Of a stretch of 11,796 nucleotides of DNA, positions 840-11,796 are shown in pieces. Source of the DNA: an uncultured Chlorobiales bacterium (GTDB lineage: Bacteria; Bacteroidota; Chlorobiia; Chlorobiales; Chlorobiaceae); contig CAIUQW010000176.1 of the NCBI GenBank assembly GCA_903901395.1, positions 1 to 11,796 on the forward strand. The letters are read 5' to 3'. Below the pieces are notes generated by a model. The model was not told where the DNA came from and searched no databases. It saw only the letters and a program-made list of their open reading frames with translations. The position numbers and the translations under genes were made by a program. The stretch's first letter is position 1. Each line of letters starts with the position of its first letter.

Positions 840-3800
840 TTAAAACATCACCGCTGTAGCTTTGGCGGCCTGGGCAAGGAAGCGTTCCATCCAGTCGGGG
901 CCGGAGTGCTTTTCGGCCAGCGCCACGGCGATGTGCTTGGGTTTGACGCCCATGTCGAGGTTGCGTCCAAGGCCCTGCACGCATGAGGGGCAGTTGGTCA
1001 GAATCGTCGCCGACTCCGCGCCGTGCATCGACTCCTTCAGCGCCTCGCGTTTGCGGTGCAGCATCGAGTCGGTGATGTCGGGCCGCGAGAGCGCCAGCGT
1101 TCCGGCCTCCGAGCAGCAGTGCGGCACGTCGGTCACCTTGCCGAAGCCGCCCACGTCGCGCAGGAGGTCGCACGCTTTGCCTTTCAGCGAGTCGTGGCAG
1201 GGGGCGTGGTAGAGGCTCTCGGTCGAACCGCCGTCCACGCGCATCCCTTTTTCCCAGGCGTAGCGCGACACATCGACGATCCGGTTGCCGAAAAGCTTCG
1301 GAGCCTCCATGATCTCCAGCCCCTCCATGCAGGTGCCGCAGGAGATGATGCAGGCGTCAAAGTCGAGATAGGCGAACATTTCGCGTATCTGGCTGAACAT
1401 TACTGTGTTGCGCAGCACAATCGAGGCGTACTCCTCCTCTTTGGCGTTGACGTGCAGCGGGAAGCCGCAGCAGAGGAAGGGCGGCGGCAGCACCACGCGC
1501 GTGCCGGTTTCGAGCAGAATGTGAAGCGAGGCCATCGAAATCGACGAATGCAGCCGCTCCGAGCCGCAGCCGGGGAAGTAGAAGACCGTCGAGTTTGCCT
1601 CCTCGCCAGCCGGTTCGAAGACGAGAACCTGGTCGCTTTCGCACGCTGGAAGTACGTCGCGCAGCGTCTTTTCCGGCACGGGCGGCACCGCCGAGCGCAG
1701 GAGCCGCAAGGGCGCAGGGACATTCTGCGCCTCCCTGGATGCCTGGAGCGGAGCGGTCATTTTCGCGCCTGCACGCTGGGCCGCGCCGCCAATCCGCAGC
1801 ACCGTGTTGCGGAACATCTTGTTGTAGAAGGGCGAGCGGTTGGCCAGGTAGTTCAGCGTCATCTTGGTGATGGGCGGCGAATTTTTCAGGCCGCGCGCCG
1901 AGAGAATCTCCCGTTCGAGAATCGACACCTCGCCCGAATCGATGTCTACCGGGCAGGGCTTGAGGCACTTGTGGCAGATGGTGCAGTGATCCGACACCTC
2001 CTCCAGCCATTGCAGAAGTTCGAAAGCCGTCGAGCGCTCGCGCTGGGCGTCGTAAAGCAGCGCCTCGATGAGCGAGCCGATGGCGAGATTCTTGTTGCGC
2101 GGATGGTAGAACATGCCTCGCGCAGGGTAGTAGACGCAGCAATCCGGCTTGCACTTACCGCAGCGAATGCAGTAGTCCACTTTCTTCGAGAGTGCTTCGA
2201 GCTTGCCGCGCTTGAGGATGTGCGCCTCCAGCTCCAGCAGGTTGAACGATGGCGTGAAGATGTGGTTCAGCGCCTCGTAATCCTCCAGTTTGCCGGGGTT
2301 CATGATGCCGTCGGGATCGACCTCGCGGCGATAGGCGCTCAGCTCGTCGATGCGAGCCTTCTCCATATACTTCAGCTTCGTCACGCCGATGCCGTGTTCA
2401 CCGGAAACTACGCCACCAAGCGAAATCACTTTTTCCATCACCAGGTCGATGACGTGATCGGCCCGTTCGAGCATCGGGCGGTCGTTCGAGAGCACCGGCA
2501 CGTTGACGTGCACGTTGCCGTCACCGGCGTGCATGTGCGTGGCCAGTACGATGCGCCGGTCGCGAACGTGCTTGTAGGCTGCCTCGATGGCGTCGAGCGT
2601 TTTCGGATAGCCGCGGAAGAGCTGGTTCAGCTCCGCGCGGAACTCCTGCAAAAGCGTGAGTGAGCGCAGGAGCAGCGGATCGGCGGCTTCGAGGCGGTTG
2701 CGGATCAGGTCGCAGAGGCCGAGGCCCGCCGGAATTTTCGCCTCGAACGGCGAGAGGCTTTCGGGATTGCTGCTTGCGTGCAGCATTTTTTCGATCCGCT
2801 CGACGTACTTCAACTGCGCGTAACGCTCCTCCTCGACGTTCAGGTCATCGATGAAGCGGGCGAAGACGGCGAGCTGCTCGATGGGGATGACGATATCCTC
2901 GTTCAGCTTGAAGGCGTTGGTGCGGCGGGCAATTGCGCCGAGCTTTTTGCGATCCTGCCAGAACTGGACGCCCTCGGCCTCGTCGCGAGCCACGAACATC
3001 AGGGTGTTTGGATGCTTTTCGAGCAACGCGTGAACGCGCTCCACGCCCGCCTCGACCTCCGCCTCCGCGTGTCCGGCGATGTCGATCAGGAGCACCGCTT
3101 TCGGCGTCTGCGGGCGGGTGGCCTTCACCTTGTAGTCGATGGCGCGGATGTACTCGTCGTCGAAGTGTTCCAGCGCGAGCAGCGTTTCGTGCTCGACGTT
3201 CTGGTAGGGAAACGCCTTCGACAGCTCCACGATGACGCGGCTCGCCTCGTCCATGTCTGGGCCGAAGAACTCCAGGCAGAGCGTGCGCTTTGCTTCGTAC
3301 TTCGGGTAGAGTACGAAGACCGCCGAGGTGATGACGCCGTCGGTGCCCTCCTTCTGCAATCCCGGCACGCCGCCAAGCGCCTTGTTGGTGATGTCCTTCC
3401 ACAGCCCCTGCTTGCGGATTTCGGTGCCGCGCAAGGCGATGCGTTTCAGCGGAGCGCCGTGCTGGTCGAGCACCTCGTAGGTCACGATGTCCTCGGGCAG
3501 AATCTTGCGAAGCTGATGGTCGGTTCGGCGCACCGTCCACAATTTGCCGCCCGGCATGGCGATCTTCCACTCAAGCAGGTTGTCGATGCAGGTGCCCCAG
3601 CGCACAGCCATTTTGCCGCCTGCGTTCTCGGCGATGTTGCCGCCGATGGTGCAGGCCCACTCGCTGGTCGGATCGGTGGCGAAGACGAGGCCATGCTCGT
3701 CGGCATGGTGCATGGCCGCCTCGGTGATGACGCCCGCTTCGACCTCGATCACGCTGCCCGTCACCGAGTGGCCATCCTTCAGGTGGAAGGTTCGCTCGGT

Positions 3801-4505
3801 GATGCCGCGCACGTGGTTCAGCTTCTCGGTGTTGATGATGACGCAATCCGAGCGAAGCGGCACCGCGCCACCCGTGAGGCCGGTGCCCGCGCCGCGCGGA
3901 ATCACGCGCAAGCCGAGCCGGGCGATAGCCCCGATGAGCGGCGCGACCTGCGCCTCGTCGTCCGGCGTCACCACGGCAACCGGCAGATACAGGCGCCAGT
4001 CAGTGGCGTCGGTTGCGTGAGCCACCAGCGAGAAGGGATCGAACAGCACGTTCTTCGCTCCGACGATGGGAGCCAGCTCTTTGCGGACTCTGCGCCGGAA
4101 CTCCGGGAGCAGCTCGATCTCGGCGCGGAACTTCTCAAGCTTTGCGCGTAAGGTCTCGACAATCGCGAGCACTCTCGGCTCTCCGTTGGCCGAGGTATGG
4201 ATGGTTTCCATGTCCTTGCGGGCATGCTCGAAAATGCGGTTCCGCCGCTTCTCGGAGCTGATCAGCTCCTCAAACAGATAGGGATTGCGGCCATGAATCA
4301 GAATGTCGCCGAAAAGCTGCATGAGCAGGCGAGCCGAGCGTCCGGTGACGCGAAGATCGCGCAGCTCCTCGATCTGCCGGACGACCTCTTCGCCAAGGAT
4401 GAACGAAATCGCCTGCCGGTCGCTTGCAGAGGTGTAGTTATATGGTATTTCGCGCCAGGCGGCAGGGACCGTCCGCGCGGCATCAGGCTTTTTATTGACA
4501 GTCAT
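840..4505 (-). CDS. DUF3683 FAD/Fe-S oxidoreductase (GlcD-GlcF/YdiJ-like fusion)
   Basis: A 1221-residue, probably cytoplasmic or membrane-associated flavin dehydrogenase. Domains in order: an N-terminal DUF3683-type region (about 1-135); an FAD-binding type 4 domain with the pyrophosphate loop PRGAGTGLTGGA (203-214) and IGGNIAENAGG (287-297); a FAD-oxidase C domain with HMHAGDGNVH (657-666), SGEHGIG (701-707) and NPGKL (736-740); two [4Fe-4S] motifs, C779-x2-C782-x2-C785-x3-C789 and C841-x2-C844-x2-C847-x3-C851-P; then two CCG domains with C980, CCG 1012-1014 and C1056/C1059, followed by C1103, CC 1130-1131 and C1172/C1175. This architecture joins GlcD-like and GlcF-like parts, as in the E. 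coli D-2-hydroxyglutarate dehydrogenase YdiJ. It implies oxidation of a D-2-hydroxyacid (lactate, glycolate or 2-hydroxyglutarate) at FAD, with electrons leaving through the iron-sulfur clusters. The substrate cannot be told from sequence. The second CCG motif reads CCS. All key residues are present and the gene looks intact. The start ATG has only a weak ribosome site, but the N-terminal region looks real. It is a single gene with its own terminator. Confidence 0.93.
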   Translation of the reverse strand: MTVNKKPDAARTVPAAWREIPYNYTSASDRQAISFILGEEVVRQIEELRDLRVTGRSARLLMQLFGDILIHGRNPYLFEELISSEKRRNRIFEHARKDMETIHTSANGEPRVLAIVETLRAKLEKFRAEIELLPEFRRRVRKELAPIVGAKNVLFDPFSLVAHATDATDWRLYLPVAVVTPDDEAQVAPLIGAIARLGLRVIPRGAGTGLTGGAVPLRSDCVIINTEKLNHVRGITERTFHLKDGHSVTGSVIEVEAGVITEAAMHHADEHGLVFATDPTSEWACTIGGNIAENAGGKMAVRWGTCIDNLLEWKIAMPGGKLWTVRRTDHQLRKILPEDIVTYEVLDQHGAPLKRIALRGTEIRKQGLWKDITNKALGGVPGLQKEGTDGVITSAVFVLYPKYEAKRTLCLEFFGPDMDEASRVIVELSKAFPYQNVEHETLLALEHFDDEYIRAIDYKVKATRPQTPKAVLLIDIAGHAEAEVEAGVERVHALLEKHPNTLMFVARDEAEGVQFWQDRKKLGAIARRTNAFKLNEDIVIPIEQLAVFARFIDDLNVEEERYAQLKYVERIEKMLHASSNPESLSPFEAKIPAGLGLCDLIRNRLEAADPLLLRSLTLLQEFRAELNQLFRGYPKTLDAIEAAYKHVRDRRIVLATHMHAGDGNVHVNVPVLSNDRPMLERADHVIDLVMEKVISLGGVVSGEHGIGVTKLKYMEKARIDELSAYRREVDPDGIMNPGKLEDYEALNHIFTPSFNLLELEAHILKRGKLEALSKKVDYCIRCGKCKPDCCVYYPARGMFYHPRNKNLAIGSLIEALLYDAQRERSTAFELLQWLEEVSDHCTICHKCLKPCPVDIDSGEVSILEREILSARGLKNSPPITKMTLNYLANRSPFYNKMFRNTVLRIGGAAQRAGAKMTAPLQASREAQNVPAPLRLLRSAVPPVPEKTLRDVLPACESDQVLVFEPAGEEANSTVFYFPGCGSERLHSSISMASLHILLETGTRVVLPPPFLCCGFPLHVNAKEEEYASIVLRNTVMFSQIREMFAYLDFDACIISCGTCMEGLEIMEAPKLFGNRIVDVSRYAWEKGMRVDGGSTESLYHAPCHDSLKGKACDLLRDVGGFGKVTDVPHCCSEAGTLALSRPDITDSMLHRKREALKESMHGAESATILTNCPSCVQGLGRNLDMGVKPKHIAVALAEKHSGPDWMERFLAQAAKATAVMF

Positions 4506-5332: not shown

Positions 5333-5953
5333 TCAGAAATAGTACTGCAATCCCGTTATGAGAGTTTTCGTTGAACTCTCAACTTTGAAATTATCATCAT
5401 CAGCTGTCGCATAATGGGAAGGTTTGAGGTATCTGAAGCCAAGATCGAGCAACAGGTGATCCGCTACCTGGATGCTTGCGCCCATGCCGAATTGCCATGC
5501 AAAAACTGTACTGTTTGCGGGATACAGCGTCGGTCCGCTCGCTTTTATGTTCACCAAACCGATACCGGTCATAACGTAAGGGTCTATTTTCGAATCCTGA
5601 TCCATATCGAGATATCCATTCACCATAAATGAGCTGATCGAAACCTTGTCATCGCTTGTAGCCGACTTATAGTTGGAGGAATTTTTTTCCTTGACCTTGA
5701 CTGCATCGTTCTGCTGATGCCCATAAGCAGCTTCAAGGCGGTAACCATCGCCCCGAAGACCTATTGCGCCGCCATAGGTCATGCTTTCCTTGAAAACGAT
5801 GGCATTGTTATATTTTCCGCCATTAAGAATGTACTTAGAGTCATTCGGTTCTGCACCACCGAAAGAAACGCTTACGTACGGTGTATCTGCAAGAGAGAGC
5901 GATGGAATCAGGCAGATGCCTGAAAGCAAAAGGGCGAGAAAACCGTTTTTCAT
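5333..5953 (-). CDS. Secreted outer-membrane beta-barrel protein (OmpA/OmpW/opacity-like)
   Basis: A 206-residue precursor with a clear Sec signal peptide: Lys2, a hydrophobic core at about 5-17 (FLALLLSGICLIP), and a likely signal peptidase I cut after Ala22 (SLSLA/DTPYV). The Cys at 14 is not in a proper lipobox, so it is probably not a lipoprotein. The mature part of about 184 residues shows alternating strands rich in aromatic and Gly residues (YVSVSFGGA, TYGGAIGLRG, GYRLEAAYGH, DPYVMTGIGLVNI, FAWQFGMGASI, LLLDLGFRYL). It ends in TLITGLQYYF, the C-terminal aromatic signature recognised by the BAM machinery. The size suits an eight-stranded barrel. No ligand or role can be read from it. 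The ATG at 5953-5951 has only a weak upstream purine stretch. It is monocistronic, with its own terminator. Confidence 0.85.
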   Translation of the reverse strand: MKNGFLALLLSGICLIPSLSLADTPYVSVSFGGAEPNDSKYILNGGKYNNAIVFKESMTYGGAIGLRGDGYRLEAAYGHQQNDAVKVKEKNSSNYKSATSDDKVSISSFMVNGYLDMDQDSKIDPYVMTGIGLVNIKASGPTLYPANSTVFAWQFGMGASIQVADHLLLDLGFRYLKPSHYATADDDNFKVESSTKTLITGLQYYF

Positions 5954-6409
5954 AATTCATTCGGTTTTATTTGTTGAATCGATACTTATCAAGAAAACTG
6001 AATTGACGCAAGATAACTGTAAAAAGGCGAGTGTCGATTGATGTGACGTAAAATATTTGAACTACCTAAGGAGGCTATGGTTCAACGTATTTTTTCTCCG
6101 ATAACGTGAAGCTAATAAACCAGGAGTGATAAGTAAAAGAAATTACAGTGGTTCGAGGAAGAAAACGAAAGAACCTTCATGTTTTTCCGCCATGAGTTGT
6201 CTTACACTATGCTTCTCTGCCTGCTCACTATTTGCTTGTAAATGGCGTATCCATTCAGTATATAAAATAATGCTGATGTTCGTGGCATGTTGTTGGTGCA
6301 GTATCCTGGAAAACCCCATTCGGCCATCTGGACTTCTCTTTATGACTCGCACTTCTCGAAATCGTCAGGCCGCTGTTGTTCTCGTCACGCTGAATGGAGG
6401 AGGCCACTG
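5954..6409. other. AT-rich divergent intergenic region between omp and res
   Basis: This region must hold the leftward promoter of the barrel gene and the rightward promoter of the restriction locus. Leftward, TTGATA (5992-5987) and TAAAAC (5969-5964) are 17 bases apart but so close to the ATG that the leader would be only a few bases, so I do not call it. Rightward, a perfect Shine-Dalgarno AAGGAGG (6068-6074) lies just 2 bases before an ATG that opens an 10-residue frame (6077-6109). A 22-codon frame (6342-6410) ends in TGATG on the res start. The long frame 6126-6410 looks non-coding, with many Cys and no family pattern. GC content rises to the level of res from about 6320. Confidence 0.45.
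6396..6403 (+). promoter_or_regulatory. Strong ribosome binding site of the res fragment
   Basis: GGAGGAGG lies 6 bases before ATG 6410. It fixes this start rather than the in-frame ATG at 6287, and it matches where proteins of the family begin (MNNPFF). It also overlaps the end of the small 6342-6410 frame. Confidence 0.75.
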
Positions 6410-6976
6410 ATGAACAATCCTTTTTTCGATCATCCGATTCTCAATTCGCCGTACGGTTATCCGGCTCGCCATTGGGAACTCGACTCCTCCGGTCAGCCGA
6501 CGCAGCGTGTCATCGAAAGCCGTCGTCGCGCCGAGTTCGTCACGCCGATTCCGAAGCCGAAAAAGCGCCGCGCCGACGAACAACAGCAGGAGCTCGTGTT
6601 CGACGAAGGCGTCGGGCTTTCGACCGAAGCGCAGCAGTACGACCAGACTTCGATCATCAACGCGGTTCGCGCCGAGGTCGATAAATGGCGTCAGTTGCCC
6701 GACCCGTCGAGCTGGCAGGTGACGCCCGAAACCGCGCGGCTCCTCAAACACTGGCGGCACCACGACTTCAGCGACATTCGCCCCTTCTTCTGCCAGCTCG
6801 AAGCGGTCGAAACCGCGATCTGGCTCAGCGAGGTCGCGCCCCATGCGGGCAAAACCGGCAGGCGCTTGCTCGATCACCTCGAAAACGCCAGCCACAATGC
6901 CAATCCGGAGATTCTCCGCCTGGCGCTCAAGCTCGCCACCGGCGCGGGCAGCAGTAACGGGTGCAAGTACAACTAA
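6410..6976 (+). pseudogene. 5' fragment of BPTD_3080-type restriction endonuclease (Res), cut in Walker A
   Basis: The 188-residue frame starts MNNPFFDHPILNSPYGYPAR and continues with HWELDSSGQPTQRVIESRRR and FVTPIPKPKKRR. I recognise this as the N-terminus of the BPTD_3080 family of type III-like restriction subunits, superfamily 2 helicase-nucleases of roughly 900-1000 residues. Family features continue through WQVTPETARLLKHW (102-115), RPFFCQLEAVETAIWL (124-139) and LRLALKLATGAG (169-180). In the family the next residues are KTTVM, completing Walker A. Here they are SSNGCKYN and a stop. About 80% of the protein is therefore missing, including the P-loop lysine, the DEAD/DEAH box, the other helicase motifs and the C-terminal nuclease. 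The break lies at about 6949/6950. The start and ribosome site are intact, so a short peptide may still be made, but it cannot act as a restriction enzyme. Family recognition is from memory. Confidence 0.85.
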
Positions 6977-6997: not shown

Positions 6998-8020
6998 ATG
7001 AGCATCGCAGGTATACGCTCCAACCGTGGAGATATTTATCAGACCATGATTGCATTCGATTGGGCATTGTATGTCCTGTCCGATCCAGAATATCAATGGC
7101 TTGAAATAGATTCGACTGCTTATTTGGTAGATGATGTAGTGATTGGCAAATCTGACGGTTCACTTATTTGCTGCCAGTGCAAAAAAAACCAGCCTGATTG
7201 TAAAGCATGGTCGATATCCGATTTAGGTGATGAGTTGGAAAAGGCTTCTGTTGTGCTGGCGGATAATCAACAGGCCAAAGTCAAATTCTATTCCCGTGAT
7301 TCGTTCGGGGCACTTGCAAAACTGCGTGAATACAGCACTCTTTGGCGCAATGATGAAGAATACCTTGGGAATTTGACCCAAGAACATATAATGACCAATC
7401 GCGATTTAGACGCTCGAATTACCGTTAAGGCTCCTTATCTCACTACCTATGACTTCCTGTGCCGCACCAGCTTTGAGACCAGCCAAAATTTTGATCATAT
7501 TGAGACTGAGTTACGTGAACGTTTGCGCTATTTGACGAGCAATTCAGTTGCTGCCTTCAACGCCCTCTGGGTACAGATAGATAAACTTGGTGGGCATATA
7601 GAGGGTGGCAATCAATTGGCTTCGACCCAGCATCGTCTCACAAAGGAAGATATTAAAGACATTCTCCATCAAGCGGGAGCCATGTTGGTTCCGATGATCT
7701 CCGTTACGGTGGTGTGCAATTCATTTGCCAGTACCTCTAATATCGGCAGGTTGTGGCGTCGGGATATAGCCGGGCATCGCATTTCGAGTCCGCTTGTAGA
7801 AGAACTCTTAGCAGCCATAGATACCAAGAAACGCGCAGTTTTGCTTTCGGGTTTACCGGGTTCGGGAAAAACTTGTGTCATGTTGAGTTTGCAAGAAGTT
7901 CTTGAGCAAAGAAGGAAAAACAAAGTGACCTTGTGCCACTTTTCATTCAATCGCGTGAATTTGCTGACTTTGCGACGGCGCAGGAACGTCAAGCACAAGG
8001 CTTACCAGAGAAATGGGTAG
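6998..8020 (+). CDS. Nuclease-STAND protein, 5' part: Cap4/DUF4297-like nuclease and P-loop
   Basis: A 340-codon frame with ATG 6998 after an AGG (6988-6990) at 7 bases, only 21 bases beyond the res fragment stop, so probably read from the res promoter. Residues about 8-110 look like a Cap4/DUF4297-type PD-(D/E)xK nuclease: NRGDIYQ, LEIDS (Glu36), VDDVVI (Asp45/46), and CQCKKN with the Gln60-x-Lys62 pair, then YSRDSFGALAKLREYS (98-113). A helical linker follows (about 150-235), then a P-loop GLPGSGKT (285-292) opening a STAND/NACHT-like ATPase. After about residue 307 the frame leaves the family pattern and becomes basic nonsense (LLTLRRRRNVKHK), while the natural continuation appears in the next frame. 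Known Avs proteins with this nuclease type degrade DNA when the STAND part is triggered by a phage protein. Such a role here is inferred. As written, the product would lack Walker B and the sensor. Confidence 0.82.
   Translation: MSIAGIRSNRGDIYQTMIAFDWALYVLSDPEYQWLEIDSTAYLVDDVVIGKSDGSLICCQCKKNQPDCKAWSISDLGDELEKASVVLADNQQAKVKFYSRDSFGALAKLREYSTLWRNDEEYLGNLTQEHIMTNRDLDARITVKAPYLTTYDFLCRTSFETSQNFDHIETELRERLRYLTSNSVAAFNALWVQIDKLGGHIEGGNQLASTQHRLTKEDIKDILHQAGAMLVPMISVTVVCNSFASTSNIGRLWRRDIAGHRISSPLVEELLAAIDTKKRAVLLSGLPGSGKTCVMLSLQEVLEQRRKNKVTLCHFSFNRVNLLTLRRRRNVKHKAYQRNG
7906..7935 (+). other. Frameshift zone joining the two halves of the nuclease-STAND gene
   Basis: The first frame has codon starts at positions such as 7931 (TTG); the second has them at 7930 and 7933. 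The second frame opens only after TGA 7903-7905, so the shift must lie after that. At 7911-7921 the sequence is GAAGGAAAAAC. Adding one A to the A5 run (7916-7920) yields RRKKQSDLVPLFIQ, which flows smoothly into the downstream domain. The event is thus most simply a one-base loss in the run. A -1 shift of the ribosome at G-AAA-AAC would have the same effect but is not a canonical slippery heptamer. A sequencing error is possible too. Confidence 0.7.
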
Positions 8021-11000
8021 AGCAGGTTGCCCGATTAGCAGAAAATACGTATGTGGTTGTGGTAATTGATTCGCTGGATGTTTTGTCCATTGCCCGTGAA
8101 CACAGTGTGTTGACATATTTCCTCGCACAAATTGACCAGTTGTTATTCATACCCAATGTCACTGTAATCACGTCCTGTCGAGACTTCGATCGCAAATACA
8201 ATCCACGAATTGCCATGCGGCAATGGGATTGCGAGTTACAGTGCTTGCCGTTGAATTGGGATTCTGACATTGTTCCGTTACTTGTTAGCCTCGGAATTGA
8301 TACAAGCGCTATTGATGATGTTACTCGTGAACTTATCCGGAATCCTCGTGAATTGGACCTTTTTGTCGAATTGGCTCAGCGTGAAGGCAGCTTCAACGTG
8401 GTTACCAGCCAGGCACTGGCACAGCGCTATCTCGATGCTATCGAGCAGATTGATCCCGAGTTGGGAGATGCAGCCATGCAAGTGCTTGAAACCATGGCCG
8501 AGACAATGCTGAAGTCTCGTAGCTTGTCTATTCCACATCAGTGCGTAAAGGCATCATCAGAAATTCAGCGGCGCTTGCGTAGTCTCAATGTCTTGCAAGA
8601 TACCCATGATGGAAAATTGACTTTTGGTCATCAAACATTACTGGACGTTCTGGTGATAAGCAGTGCTATACGGCAAGGGGTTTCGCTCAATGAGTTTATC
8701 AAAGGCTTGCCTCCAGTTCCCTTTGTGCGCCCCAGCATACGTAGTTTTGTCGCACAGCTTGCAACAGGAGATCGCCGAGAGTTCAGGAAACAACTGCGAG
8801 CGGTCTTAACTGGAAAATCACCATTTCATATTCGCCGTTTGATTGCGGAATCATTTGCTCAGCAAATGCCGCAAGATGATGATTGGCCGATGATAAGAGA
8901 GCTGCGAGAAAAGCACCATGAAGTGTTCAACGTGATATACTTCCATGCAACATTTATTGAGTGGCACTACTTTTGGTTTTCTCATTTGGTGCCGATTTTG
9001 AAAGAAATGTACGACTCCGAGGGAATGATGGCCCATGTTCACCGGGTAGCGAATTGGCAAAATGAAGATGCTGCCGGGGTAATGGCATTTTGGATGGATA
9101 CGTTGGCGCTGGATTGGCTGGATGGGAATAGAATTGCGGAGCAATTGGTGTTTTCGATATCTAAATTCAAAACAGAAAATTTGCCACTTGTTGCGCCCTT
9201 ACTTGAACGATTACTCAGTGTCCCAAAGCCAGCGCATAGCTTATTGGGCCATACTATTGCACGCTGCGTTGAAGCTGGCGCTGTTGATGACAGATTATTA
9301 TGGAGCTATATCGCTGGAGATATAGGTGACGATGATGTGATGGAATTTCATTTTAACAATAAACTTCACTGTCAACCGCATAATTTTGGAGATAAGAACG
9401 ATGGTTTTCTGGTAAAAAGAATGATGAGTTCGGTCGCCCTATTGGATTTGGCATTAGAATCAATCGAACGTTGGAGCCAAGTCAGGTCGGTTAGCAATGG
9501 CGAATCTAAAACAAGTTATCGCCAAGGATTTTTGGATGAAACCTCCTATTTTGATGTTCACTCACAGATTGATCACCGGCATGTAGATGAGGAACGAATT
9601 CTGTTCGATGCAATTGAAGCAGCTGTTCTCGATCATGCAAAAAACCACTCAAAGTGGTGGCTTAAGAATCGAGAAGGTCTTTGCTTTAATCATGAGCTTG
9701 CATTATGCTATTTTGCTGTTCTTGCTTGTAAAAAATATCCAATAAATAATATTGATTTGATTGGTCGTGTGTTGTGCGATAAGAATTTATTGGAATCAAA
9801 ACTTTCTTACGAACTATGTGATTTGAGTTATGCTGCATTTATTTACTTGGATAGAAATACGCAGAATATTGTTCTAAAGACAATACAAGACGTTTTTAAG
9901 GAATATATGATGGATGCGGATAATCGCTCGTGGATATTAAGGGTTCAAGCAAAATACATATCATCAGTGCCATGCTTTCTCCGTACAATAGATGCGCAAG
10001 CGATACTTGATGAGTACGAAAGAATAAATGGAAAAATGGAGAGAAAGCCATCCATGAGTATACGAAGCTATAGCGTTTCCGCTCCTTTTTCATTTGAGAA
10101 ATTTTTGAGTGTAAGTGATGACGGAGTGATTTGCTTGCTATCGCACTACTCTGGATATAATCGAGATTTTGAGGACTTTTCAGTAGGAGGAGAGCGTGAA
10201 GTCGGTTGGCAACTACGGGAGGCAGCATCTCGACACCCAGTGCGATTTATGAGATTGCTGGTGTCTTATTGGACAAATATTTCAGCACATTTTCGCGATG
10301 ATATTATGGATGGCCTCGCCACATACCTGGCTTATCGTTATGGAAATTTGCGAATCAACGGCAATTGGGTACCTATAGATGAACCTGATGCTGCTGATTT
10401 GGCAAGTCAAATTCTTATTGAGCTGGAGCGACATCCTGAACACTGGCAACTCAATCGCTCTGCTGCTGAGGCTCTCGAAAGCTGTGCACATGTCATTCTT
10501 GATACACAAAGTGCTATGCGATTGGTATTTTTAGCAATAGGTTTTGAAAGGCTTTGTGAGGAAGAACCCGTCAACAAAGCTAATTCAGACAACTTGATTA
10601 ATGTAGGCTTCGGTATGACAAGTGGAAAAGTAGTCGAAGCTATGATGATTCTAATCGAAAAACTATACGAGCGAGGCATTGAAATACCCGAATTATTACC
10701 ACCTATTTTACTTCGATACGCAAGCAACGAACATCCTGCTATTCGCGCATTAATTCTAAGACGTTTGCCTTACCTTCAAAGTAAGAATCCCGAGTTTGGT
10801 TGGAAACTCTTTCACCTAGCTATGCAGAATGATGATAGACTTTGGCGTATTGCAGAGCCTTGTCTGTATTACGCATATTACGACCAGTTCGAAAACGTAG
10901 CTCCGTTGCTTGAACGTATCTATCAAAATGGCAGTTCGGATAGCATGGAAACTTGGGGTCGTATTTCAGCTTTATCAGCGTTGAGAGGTCATATTGAATT

Positions 11001-11568
11001 TATAAATTTACTTGCTGACTTGAATGCTCTGAATATGACTGAAGCATGGAAAGGGGCTGCCGATGTATGGACTTATCCTGGCAACATCAAGCTGCATCGT
11101 GAACAATGCCTTGCAGGTATTGAAGCAGGATTAAAAGCAGTTGATTCTCATTCAAAGACTGTTGTTAAATGTGCAGAAAATATTTTCAGAGAGAAAACTC
11201 CGCCAATCTTGATTCCTATTGAATTGATTCAGCTTTTCTTTGGTGTACTCGAAAACTATAGCGAGGATAAATATCATAGTCTTTTTGGATTTAATGAATG
11301 GCTTAATGCTACTTCGCAACGAGACTCAGAGTTCGCATTAACCGCAACTGAAATTTACTTGGCATATGTCAGTCGTGCCAAGCCATACTTTTTTGACCAT
11401 GAGAATCAAATGGTCCAGGTAGTGACCAGACTTTTTGCTGAAGCCGAAGAACGCGAAGAATCTGATAATGGAGAAATGCTCAAGCGTGTGGTAGCAGTGC
11501 AAGATTTGCTGTTATCTTTGGAAGTGACTTCTGTAAATGATTGGCTAACAGCAGCTGAAAGGCCATAG
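7933..11568 (+). CDS. Nuclease-STAND protein, 3' part: ATPase core and long helical sensor region
   Basis: An open frame of 1211 residues from a GTG that has no properly spaced ribosome site, so it is probably not an independent start but the continuation of the upstream frame (fused length about 1523). It carries Walker B VVVVIDSLD (41-49), a sensor-like SCRDFD (81-86), the helical STAND-type motif RNPRELDLFVELA (136-148), and a winged-helix-type FGHQTLLDVL (231-240). The remaining 950 or so residues are mostly alpha-helical with no family I can name. Some stretches look HEAT-like (around residue 930: HPAIRALILRRLPYLQ). By analogy with Avs and NACHT defense proteins this would be the target-recognition part. 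No membrane segment is visible. Base composition grows more AT-rich in the middle (around 9.7-10 kb) than in the nuclease and ATPase parts. The TAG stop overlaps the next GTG. Apart from the frame break no internal stop occurs, so decay, if any, is recent. Confidence 0.8.
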   Translation: MPLFIQSREFADFATAQERQAQGLPEKWVEQVARLAENTYVVVVIDSLDVLSIAREHSVLTYFLAQIDQLLFIPNVTVITSCRDFDRKYNPRIAMRQWDCELQCLPLNWDSDIVPLLVSLGIDTSAIDDVTRELIRNPRELDLFVELAQREGSFNVVTSQALAQRYLDAIEQIDPELGDAAMQVLETMAETMLKSRSLSIPHQCVKASSEIQRRLRSLNVLQDTHDGKLTFGHQTLLDVLVISSAIRQGVSLNEFIKGLPPVPFVRPSIRSFVAQLATGDRREFRKQLRAVLTGKSPFHIRRLIAESFAQQMPQDDDWPMIRELREKHHEVFNVIYFHATFIEWHYFWFSHLVPILKEMYDSEGMMAHVHRVANWQNEDAAGVMAFWMDTLALDWLDGNRIAEQLVFSISKFKTENLPLVAPLLERLLSVPKPAHSLLGHTIARCVEAGAVDDRLLWSYIAGDIGDDDVMEFHFNNKLHCQPHNFGDKNDGFLVKRMMSSVALLDLALESIERWSQVRSVSNGESKTSYRQGFLDETSYFDVHSQIDHRHVDEERILFDAIEAAVLDHAKNHSKWWLKNREGLCFNHELALCYFAVLACKKYPINNIDLIGRVLCDKNLLESKLSYELCDLSYAAFIYLDRNTQNIVLKTIQDVFKEYMMDADNRSWILRVQAKYISSVPCFLRTIDAQAILDEYERINGKMERKPSMSIRSYSVSAPFSFEKFLSVSDDGVICLLSHYSGYNRDFEDFSVGGEREVGWQLREAASRHPVRFMRLLVSYWTNISAHFRDDIMDGLATYLAYRYGNLRINGNWVPIDEPDAADLASQILIELERHPEHWQLNRSAAEALESCAHVILDTQSAMRLVFLAIGFERLCEEEPVNKANSDNLINVGFGMTSGKVVEAMMILIEKLYERGIEIPELLPPILLRYASNEHPAIRALILRRLPYLQSKNPEFGWKLFHLAMQNDDRLWRIAEPCLYYAYYDQFENVAPLLERIYQNGSSDSMETWGRISALSALRGHIEFINLLADLNALNMTEAWKGAADVWTYPGNIKLHREQCLAGIEAGLKAVDSHSKTVVKCAENIFREKTPPILIPIELIQLFFGVLENYSEDKYHSLFGFNEWLNATSQRDSEFALTATEIYLAYVSRAKPYFFDHENQMVQVVTRLFAEAEEREESDNGEMLKRVVAVQDLLLSLEVTSVNDWLTAAERP

Positions 11569-11796
11569 TGTCAAAGAAGAGTGCAAATGAAAACCTCCAA
11601 AACCAGAAAAAAGAAGAGGCTTTGATGAACGCTATAGTCAACTATCATGGCCAAAAATTCGGCACCGTCTCGCGCCCCGACCTCGTCGGAGCCGCCCGCG
11701 AAGCCGGAGACGCCGGATTCGACGTGCTTGTCGCCTGCGCCTTCAACTACGACGCGCACTCCTCCGAATTCAACAAACTCGGCAGAATCCCCGTCC
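11568..11796 (+). CDS. C-terminal portion of an adenine DNA methyltransferase (Mod-like), runs off the window
   Basis: The frame is open to the window edge. From about 11645 it encodes KFGTVSRPDLVGAAREAGDA, then GFDVLVACAFNYDAH and FNKLGRIPV. I recognise this as resembling the C-terminal region of large site-specific adenine methyltransferases that accompany BPTD_3080-type Res subunits (typical text FGTVSRPDLVAAAREAGD...). The methylase catalytic motifs (DPPY-type and FxGxG) would lie upstream and are absent here. Two starts are possible. GTG 11568 overlaps the previous TAG by one base, with AAAGG 5 bases upstream, and gives a lysine-rich leader VSKKSANENLQNQKK. ATG 11625 has GAAGAGG 5 bases upstream. 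Either would express a headless fragment. GC content (about 63% in one counted line) matches the res remnant, not the cassette. Family recognition is from memory. The full gene lies beyond the window. Confidence 0.6.
   Translation, partial: MSKKSANENLQNQKKEEALMNAIVNYHGQKFGTVSRPDLVGAAREAGDAGFDVLVACAFNYDAHSSEFNKLGRIPV

What the first reader, a model, noticed from the sequence alone, without database searches (positions are those of the whole stretch)
6998..11568. Nuclease-STAND (Avs-like) defense gene with an unassigned sensor
Joined across the frame break, the gene encodes about 1523 residues: an N-terminal Cap4/DUF4297-like nuclease (Glu36, Asp45/46, Gln60-x-Lys62), a P-loop (GLPGSGKT), Walker B (VVVVIDSLD), a CRDFD sensor motif, a winged-helix-like FGHQTLLDVL, and about 950 residues of helical sequence I cannot place. 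The order effector-STAND-repeat sensor is that of Avs antiphage proteins. The C-terminal region does not look to me like the tetratricopeptide sensors of the described Avs types, so this may be a distinct subtype with its own trigger.
Basis: partly seen in the sequence, partly recalled or inferred. Interest (0 to 1): 0.75.

Follow-up and report, generated by a model that had tools for sequence, protein, structure and literature searches.

The report
Broken copy of bacterial immune receptor
This stretch holds a frame-broken copy of a large gene of the bacterial immune-receptor kind (a DNA-cutting head, an ATP switch and a long sensor) lodged where most of a restriction-modification system used to be in a green sulfur bacterium; the family is real and widespread, is not one of the named Avs types tested, and already has a close relative with a solved structure.

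Summary
Window 6998-11568 encodes, in two frames, a ~1520-residue protein: Cap4-type nuclease, STAND/NACHT ATPase with winged helix, ~870-residue sensor. An intact 1519-residue relative (81-84% identical) lies at the same chromosomal site in Chlorobaculum thiosulfatiphilum. The family is large (954 hits among 8000 scored candidates). No NCBIfam Avs model matches five members, nor does SeAvs3: 'Avs-like, but none of the types tested' is supported. 'Unassigned' is only partly right: a full-length relative is solved (PDB 9n00, 9n01, 9yix), 62% identical over the 959 residues I could read. I found no paper on it.

Two additions. (1) In the window and C. thiosulfatiphilum the gene stands in place of ~4.8 kb of a type III-like res-mod operon present at that site in a relative. 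(2) The same ATPase-sensor chassis carries caspase, trypsin, SEFIR/TIR, phosphorylase or glycosyltransferase heads elsewhere; a 133-row tree needs 13 head changes.

Most likely a phage sensor that triggers DNA cleavage; trigger unknown; the window copy is dead or mis-sequenced.

The parts
6998..7687 (+). N-terminal Cap4/DUF4297-type nuclease domain (residues 1-230); E36, D45-D46, Q60-x-K62
   Evidence: Pfam Cap4_nuclease in 7 of 25 relatives; PADLOC LmuA E 6.7e-8; residues invariant in 25 of 25, E36 >=90%
7850..7873 (+). Walker A (P-loop) GLPGSGKT
7903..7935 (+). zone holding the single frame break (last stop of the downstream frame at 7903-7905); gene broken here, intact copies exist
7688..8946 (+). 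STAND/NACHT-type ATPase core with winged helix (interrupted by the frame break)
   Evidence: NACHT and AAA profiles each in 23 of 23 relatives; alignment A5
8053..8079 (+). Walker B VVVVIDSLD
8176..8190 (+). sensor-1-like CRDFD
8341..8355 (+). NPREL, STAND GxP-like motif (label recalled)
   Evidence: invariant in 32 of 32 rows of A1
8623..8652 (+). winged-helix motif FGHQTLLDVL
8947..11565 (+). C-terminal sensor, about 870 residues, no Pfam family; its profile finds only 9n00 in the PDB at E <= 1
6287..6976 (+). truncated res gene (BPTD_3080-type restriction endonuclease), cut at its own Walker A (LATGAG/KTT); DNA homology to the intact locus ends at 6950
   Evidence: NCBIfam NF046055 E 1.1e-59 over model positions 1-164 of 970
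11656..11796 (+). C-terminal remnant of the mod (type III methyltransferase) gene, runs off the window
   Evidence: PADLOC MTase_III E 7.7e-20; 97.1% DNA identity over 139 bases to L080 and to L003
6951..11655 (+). cassette with the receptor gene, standing in place of about 4.8 kb of res-mod
   Evidence: comparison with L080 8289-13055 and L003

Best explanation
It is a broken copy of a single-gene STAND (NLR-like) defence receptor. Proposed working: the ~870-residue C-terminal region, probably a helical solenoid, binds a conserved phage-made (or phage-perturbed) molecule; the NACHT/STAND ATPase exchanges nucleotide and oligomerises; the Cap4-type nuclease heads come together and cut double-stranded DNA, stopping the phage or killing the cell. 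Shown here: domain order, conservation of the catalytic and nucleotide-binding residues, purifying selection, no recurrent neighbour gene, repeated exchange of the N-terminal head, and lodging inside a defence (res-mod) locus. Inferred from Avs and other STAND receptors: solenoid fold, oligomerisation, DNA cleavage, phage trigger. The window copy is broken in frame just after the P-loop and, if the sequence is right, makes no complete receptor.
For: Nuclease; the DD..QxK motif is present in 323 of 326 nuclease-headed proteins; of the other three, one has ExK and two lack the motif. ATPase: NACHT in 23 of 23. Core and sensor profiles match 117 of 117 new proteins of the third search. Heads exchanged with caspase, trypsin, SEFIR/TIR, PNP phosphorylase and GT4-conflict; 13 changes on the tree as built, minimum 5 for six labels. 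No neighbour family in more than 4 of 53 loci. Defence context: stands in the middle of a res-mod operon. dN/dS 0.192 before and 0.195 after the break against C. thiosulfatiphilum. Known Avs logic: PMC12931631 and PMC12724215 (passages seen).
Against: I found no phage assay or trigger for this family (paper searches listed under Tried and rejected). The ATPase profile also meets the Pch2/TRIP13 AAA+ ATPase (4xgu, E 3.8e-6), and Pfam AAA scores a little better than NACHT in the first member, so a remodeller-like use is not excluded. The Cap4 match is weak in sequence (7 of 25 members; none for P0001 itself). No structure could be predicted. T7 large terminase and portal gave no chain of 9n00, 9n01 or 9yix, while they did meet the Avs complexes 8dgc (SeAvs3) and 8dgf (Avs4, recalled); this says little about other phages.
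Confidence: 0.8

Rival explanations
1. A divergent branch of an already named Avs type (Avs3, which also has a Cap4-type head; recalled).
For: Same order of parts; same kind of nuclease head.
Against: No NCBIfam Avs model matches five family members at E <= 10; Avs models seen by name there: Avs5, Avs4, Avs3a. An Avs3-like protein, L092, finds SeAvs3 8dgc_A at 874 bits but gives no significant blastp or profile match to this family; the family's profiles do not reach 8dgc at E <= 1. Length ~1520 against 2092.
Confidence: 0.1
2. Not a phage sensor but a Pch2/TRIP13-like AAA+ or host-stress sensor that cuts DNA when host chromosome or replication is disturbed.
For: Pch2 is the best non-family PDB match of the ATPase; the sensor is evenly conserved (column conservation 0.44-0.61 per 50 residues from residue 650 on, 135 sequences), as for a conserved or host-made ligand.
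Against: NACHT profile in 23 of 23 cores; heads typical of STAND receptors exchange on this core; patchy distribution (2 of 21 genus genomes).
Confidence: 0.2
3. The broken frame is functional: two proteins (nuclease + P-loop piece; rest) made separately or by frameshifting.
For: Two long open frames; Nitrincola sp. A-D6 (L035) also has the gene in two ORFs, parting near residue 340.
Against: 39 of 53 loci carry one full-length ORF; the breaks in L015, L018, L022 and L035 fall at different places; here the break splits the ATPase right after Walker A.
Confidence: 0.04

Closest known systems
PDB 9n00/9n01/9yix, 'AAA family ATPase', 1523 aa
   Same: Same family end to end (1-1518 against 1-1522, 1971.7 bits); nuclease, core and sensor profiles each match
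   Different: 62% identical to the intact Chlorobaculum protein over its first 959 residues (the rest was not printed). Nearest database cluster P0121 is 97% over that part, the next named hits being Enterobacterales; entry titles and paper not seen
Avs3 (SeAvs3, PDB 8dgc)
   Same: Effector-STAND-sensor order; Cap4-type nuclease head (recalled)
   Different: No significant sequence match through the Avs3-like protein L092; 2092 against ~1520 residues
Avs4, Avs5 (NCBIfam NF041815, NF041814)
   Same: STAND receptor with an N-terminal effector
   Different: No model match; Avs5 has a Sir2 head and predicted TPR/Sel1/PPR repeats (passages of PMC12931631)
Cap4 / LmuA (CBASS and Lamassu nucleases; system names recalled)
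   Same: Nuclease head: Pfam PF14130 in 7 of 25, PADLOC LmuA
   Different: Here fused to its own ATPase and sensor; no partner gene recurs beside it
Cyanobacterial caspase-headed relatives (e.g. BAY35410, L056)
   Same: Same core and sensor, ~30% identical over residues 210-1516
   Different: Caspase head (Peptidase_C14 1.2e-11)

Membership tests
STAND/NACHT NTPase receptors | Walker A, Walker B, sensor-1 Arg, GxP-like and winged-helix motifs in order (set of motifs recalled) | tested here: met
   Motifs conserved in alignments; NACHT profile in 23 of 23 at E <= 0.1, best 5.9e-9. Scores lie near Pfam's cut-off 26.7: L003 core 26.1, P0346 27.1, intact whole protein 23.6
STAND/NACHT NTPase receptors | Oligomerises on ligand and nucleotide binding | not testable with these tools
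   -
Cap4/DUF4297 nuclease | Catalytic D...(E/Q)xK | tested here: met
   D45-D46 and Q60-x-K62 in 25 of 25; motif in 323 of 326
Cap4/DUF4297 nuclease | Family profile match | tested here: inconclusive
   7 of 25 members at E <= 0.1, best 2.7e-5; none for P0001
Cap4/DUF4297 nuclease | PD-(D/E)xK fold | not testable with these tools
   Structure prediction switched off
Avs (AVAST) types | Effector-STAND-sensor order | tested here: met
Avs (AVAST) types | Match to an Avs family model | tested here: not met
   NCBIfam, 5 proteins, E <= 10: none named Avs; PADLOC, intact protein, E <= 1: none named Avs
Avs3 | Homology to SeAvs3 | tested here: not met
   8dgc is in the PDB copy searched
Avs types | TPR-type sensor (recalled as typical; Avs5) | tested here: not met
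   No TPR family for 24 sensors at E <= 0.1; HEAT_2 in 1 of 24, E 0.0072
Avs types | Triggered by terminase or portal | not testable with these tools
   Only that T7 gp19 and gp8 searches list no chain of the solved relative's entries

The most novel reading that the evidence does not exclude
A STAND receptor lineage separate from Avs1-5, with one strongly conserved sensor spread over many phyla and at least six exchangeable killing heads (Cap4 nuclease, caspase, trypsin, SEFIR/TIR, PNP, GT4), recognising one conserved trigger not yet named; in Chlorobaculum it moves by replacing the core of restriction-modification operons while their ends remain as homology arms.
Probability: 0.45. Interest if true: 0.6.

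Novelty: new member of a known kind. Interest (0 to 1): 0.4.

Why it matters
The family is large, is present and intact in named cultured strains, has a solved member, and no PADLOC 2023 or NCBIfam 2026 model names the members tried, so annotation by these libraries overlooks it. Natural pairs that share a sensor but differ in head (P0250 caspase and P0255 nuclease, 86% identical over 1326 residues) would allow a clean test of whether the trigger is fixed by the sensor alone. The Chlorobaculum locus gives a resolved case of one defence gene standing where another defence system was.

Tried and rejected
Neisseria origin: its DNA uptake sequence has 0 matches in the window; the host is Chlorobaculum. 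Plasmid match of the neighbouring FAD gene: none. Conserved partner genes: no family in more than 4 of 53 loci (contig ends cut some flanks). Carriage on phages: no match in 50,697 records. Plasmids: 7 of 72,556 records, all under 60% identity, 6 of the 7 cyanobacterial. E. coli: no near match of the Photorhabdus gene's DNA. N-terminal stubs in L009, L052, L054 and L055 looked like a pattern; put down to bias, since the search word CCQCKKNQ, invariant in the 25 N-termini aligned, lies in the N-terminus. Name of the solved relative: PDB codes searched in papers (the one '9yix' hit is a medical case report, seen as a listing only, and unrelated) and topics: no paper on this family was recognised in those listings; the library holds no bioRxiv preprints of its own and few subscription papers. 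Trigger by co-deposited chains: T7 terminase and portal tried, negative; lambda fetched but not used. NCBIfam numbers were guessed from recall: NF041812 proved to be an unrelated family; the Avs4 model found only weak matches in 11 of 200 genomes; one of these, L087, gave a weak P-loop profile match to this family (probability 10.9%).

Full report
What is there. Window 6998-11568 holds two overlapping open frames, 6998-8020 and 7933-11568, with one frame break between about 7903 and 7935. The host assembly G000 is 77.8% complete in 457 contigs. G015, of the same genus, encodes an uninterrupted 1519-residue relative; its contig has the length of, and its protein is identical to, the one that other searches name Chlorobaculum thiosulfatiphilum DSM 249. 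Among 21 genus genomes searched, only these two match.

Anatomy. Residues 1-230 carry E36 (at least 90%) and invariant D45, D46, Q60, K62 in 25 of 25 rows. Pfam Cap4_nuclease matches 7 of 25 (best 2.7e-5) and PADLOC LmuA the window piece (6.7e-8). Of the 357 proteins fetched, 326 were labelled as having this head by profile coverage, and 323 of those show the DD..QxK motif; one of the other three has ExK and two have lost it. Residues 231-650 match NACHT in 23 of 23 and AAA in 23 of 23; the best PDB match outside the family is Pch2, 3.8e-6. The sensor (about 870 residues) has no Pfam family; HEAT_2 touches 1 of 24, and only 9n00 matches in the PDB at E <= 1.

Selection. Against C. thiosulfatiphilum, dN/dS is 0.192 before the break (300 codons) and 0.195 after it (1205 codons); the neighbouring FAD/FeS gene has 0.107. 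So the gene was under constraint until recently, whether the break is a mutation or an assembly error.

Family. 954 proteins at E <= 1e-5 were found among the 8000 candidates scored; 117 of the 120 listed are 1515-1526 residues long. Contig matches come from Chlorobiota, Pseudomonadota, Nitrospirota, Cyanobacteriota and a Paceibacterota bin, by their titles. Of 53 loci, 39 carry a single full-length ORF; the rest are cut by contig ends, broken, or stubs. No neighbour family occurs in more than 4 of 53 loci. A PDB chain of 1523 residues (9n00, 9n01, 9yix; six chains in all) matches from 1 to 1518 with 1971.7 bits; over its first 959 residues it is 61.9% identical to the intact protein, and 57.7% and 63.3% to the two window pieces. 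A protein 97% identical to that part stands for 186 member sequences (P0121).

Relation to Avs. Five family members meet no NCBIfam Avs model at E <= 10, although Avs5, Avs4 and Avs3a models exist there. An Avs3-like protein, L092, finds SeAvs3 8dgc_A at 874 bits but shows no significant match to this family by blastp or profile. In passages of PMC12931631, Avs1-4 are described as nuclease systems recognising terminase, portal or Ksap1, and Avs5 as Sir2-headed. It looks built to work like an Avs; it is not shown to be one of Avs1-5.

Head exchange. Cyanobacterial plasmid relatives share residues 210-1516 at ~30%; the one scanned from the caspase-type group has a caspase head. Of 117 new proteins in the third search, 88 have the Cap4 head, 13 caspase, 4 trypsin, one each SEFIR, PNP and GT4, and 9 are fragments or unassigned (caspase, trypsin, SEFIR, PNP and GT4 confirmed on one protein each, E 4.1e-13 or better; P0255, labelled Cap4 by our profile, has no Pfam head match there). 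All 240 proteins of the first two searches match the nuclease profile (238 of them with the coverage asked for). In a tree of 133 core-sensor sequences (28 of the 240 earlier proteins and third-search proteins of enough length) all labels together need 13 changes (minimum 5; no shuffle of 200 as low); starred branches force at least 6 for caspase and 3 for trypsin. P0250 (caspase) and P0255 (nuclease) are 86% identical over 1326 residues, starting just after the heads; P0248 keeps a 56-residue scrap of the nuclease behind its caspase. Limits: quick tree, several long branches flagged, and sampling centred on a caspase-headed cyanobacterial query.

The site. Upstream lies the start of a res gene of the BPTD_3080 kind (NCBIfam E 1.1e-59, model 1-164 of 970), downstream the end of a mod gene (PADLOC MTase_III). 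In G020 (L080) the same site, next to the same FAD/FeS gene and a 138-aa ORF, has an uninterrupted 1045-codon res frame followed by a 949-codon mod frame; G001 (L081) has the uninterrupted res there, its contig ending about 1 kb further on. DNA homology between window and L080 stops at window 6950 and resumes at 11656, which is 8288 and 13056 in L080; C. thiosulfatiphilum breaks at 7966 and 12642. The first 139 bases of the mod end in the window are 97.1% identical to L080 and to C. thiosulfatiphilum; over a longer stretch the latter two differ more (76% over 410 bases). Both carriers share both joints, so one event, or later transfer of the whole block, explains them. The upstream joint falls inside the Walker A codons of res. 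How the exchange happened (homologous recombination or other), and that res-mod was there first, are inferences.

Mechanism. By analogy with Avs and other STAND receptors, the sensor binds a trigger, the ATPase assembles, and the nuclease cuts DNA. The head exchange supports 'one sensor, several ways to kill'. The sensor is conserved fairly evenly (0.44-0.61 per 50 residues from residue 650 on in 135 sequences), which fits a slowly evolving ligand. The trigger is unknown: searches with T7 terminase and portal list no chain of the solved entries, a weak negative.

Verdict.

Noticed in passing
window 5336-5953 (-): A 206-aa outer-membrane beta-barrel gene (Pfam OMP_b-brl 1.6e-8) sits between the FAD/FeS gene and res in the window only. 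It gave no match in L003, L080 or L081, where the unaligned interval is more than 1 kb shorter. No clear flanking repeats.
   Followed up: partly
window 840-4505 (-): A 1221-aa protein joining DUF3683, FAD oxidase, 4Fe-4S and CCG domains; it anchors the site in four Chlorobaculum genomes including the window's.
   Followed up: partly
L009 5188-5475: Nitrincola alkalisediminis has an N-terminal stub of the same family about 2.5 kb upstream of an intact copy: possible earlier copy lost and regained.
   Followed up: no
L050 8001-8852: Polaromonas sp. OV174 has one 283-aa ORF matching residues 1-239 and 1472-1518, as if the ATPase and most of the sensor were deleted.
   Followed up: no
P0248 residues 280-335: Scrap of the Cap4 head kept between the caspase head and the ATPase, a trace of head replacement.
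   Followed up: partly
P0316, P0317: Two close sisters on the tree with different heads, SEFIR/EAD7/TIR against PNP phosphorylase.
   Followed up: no
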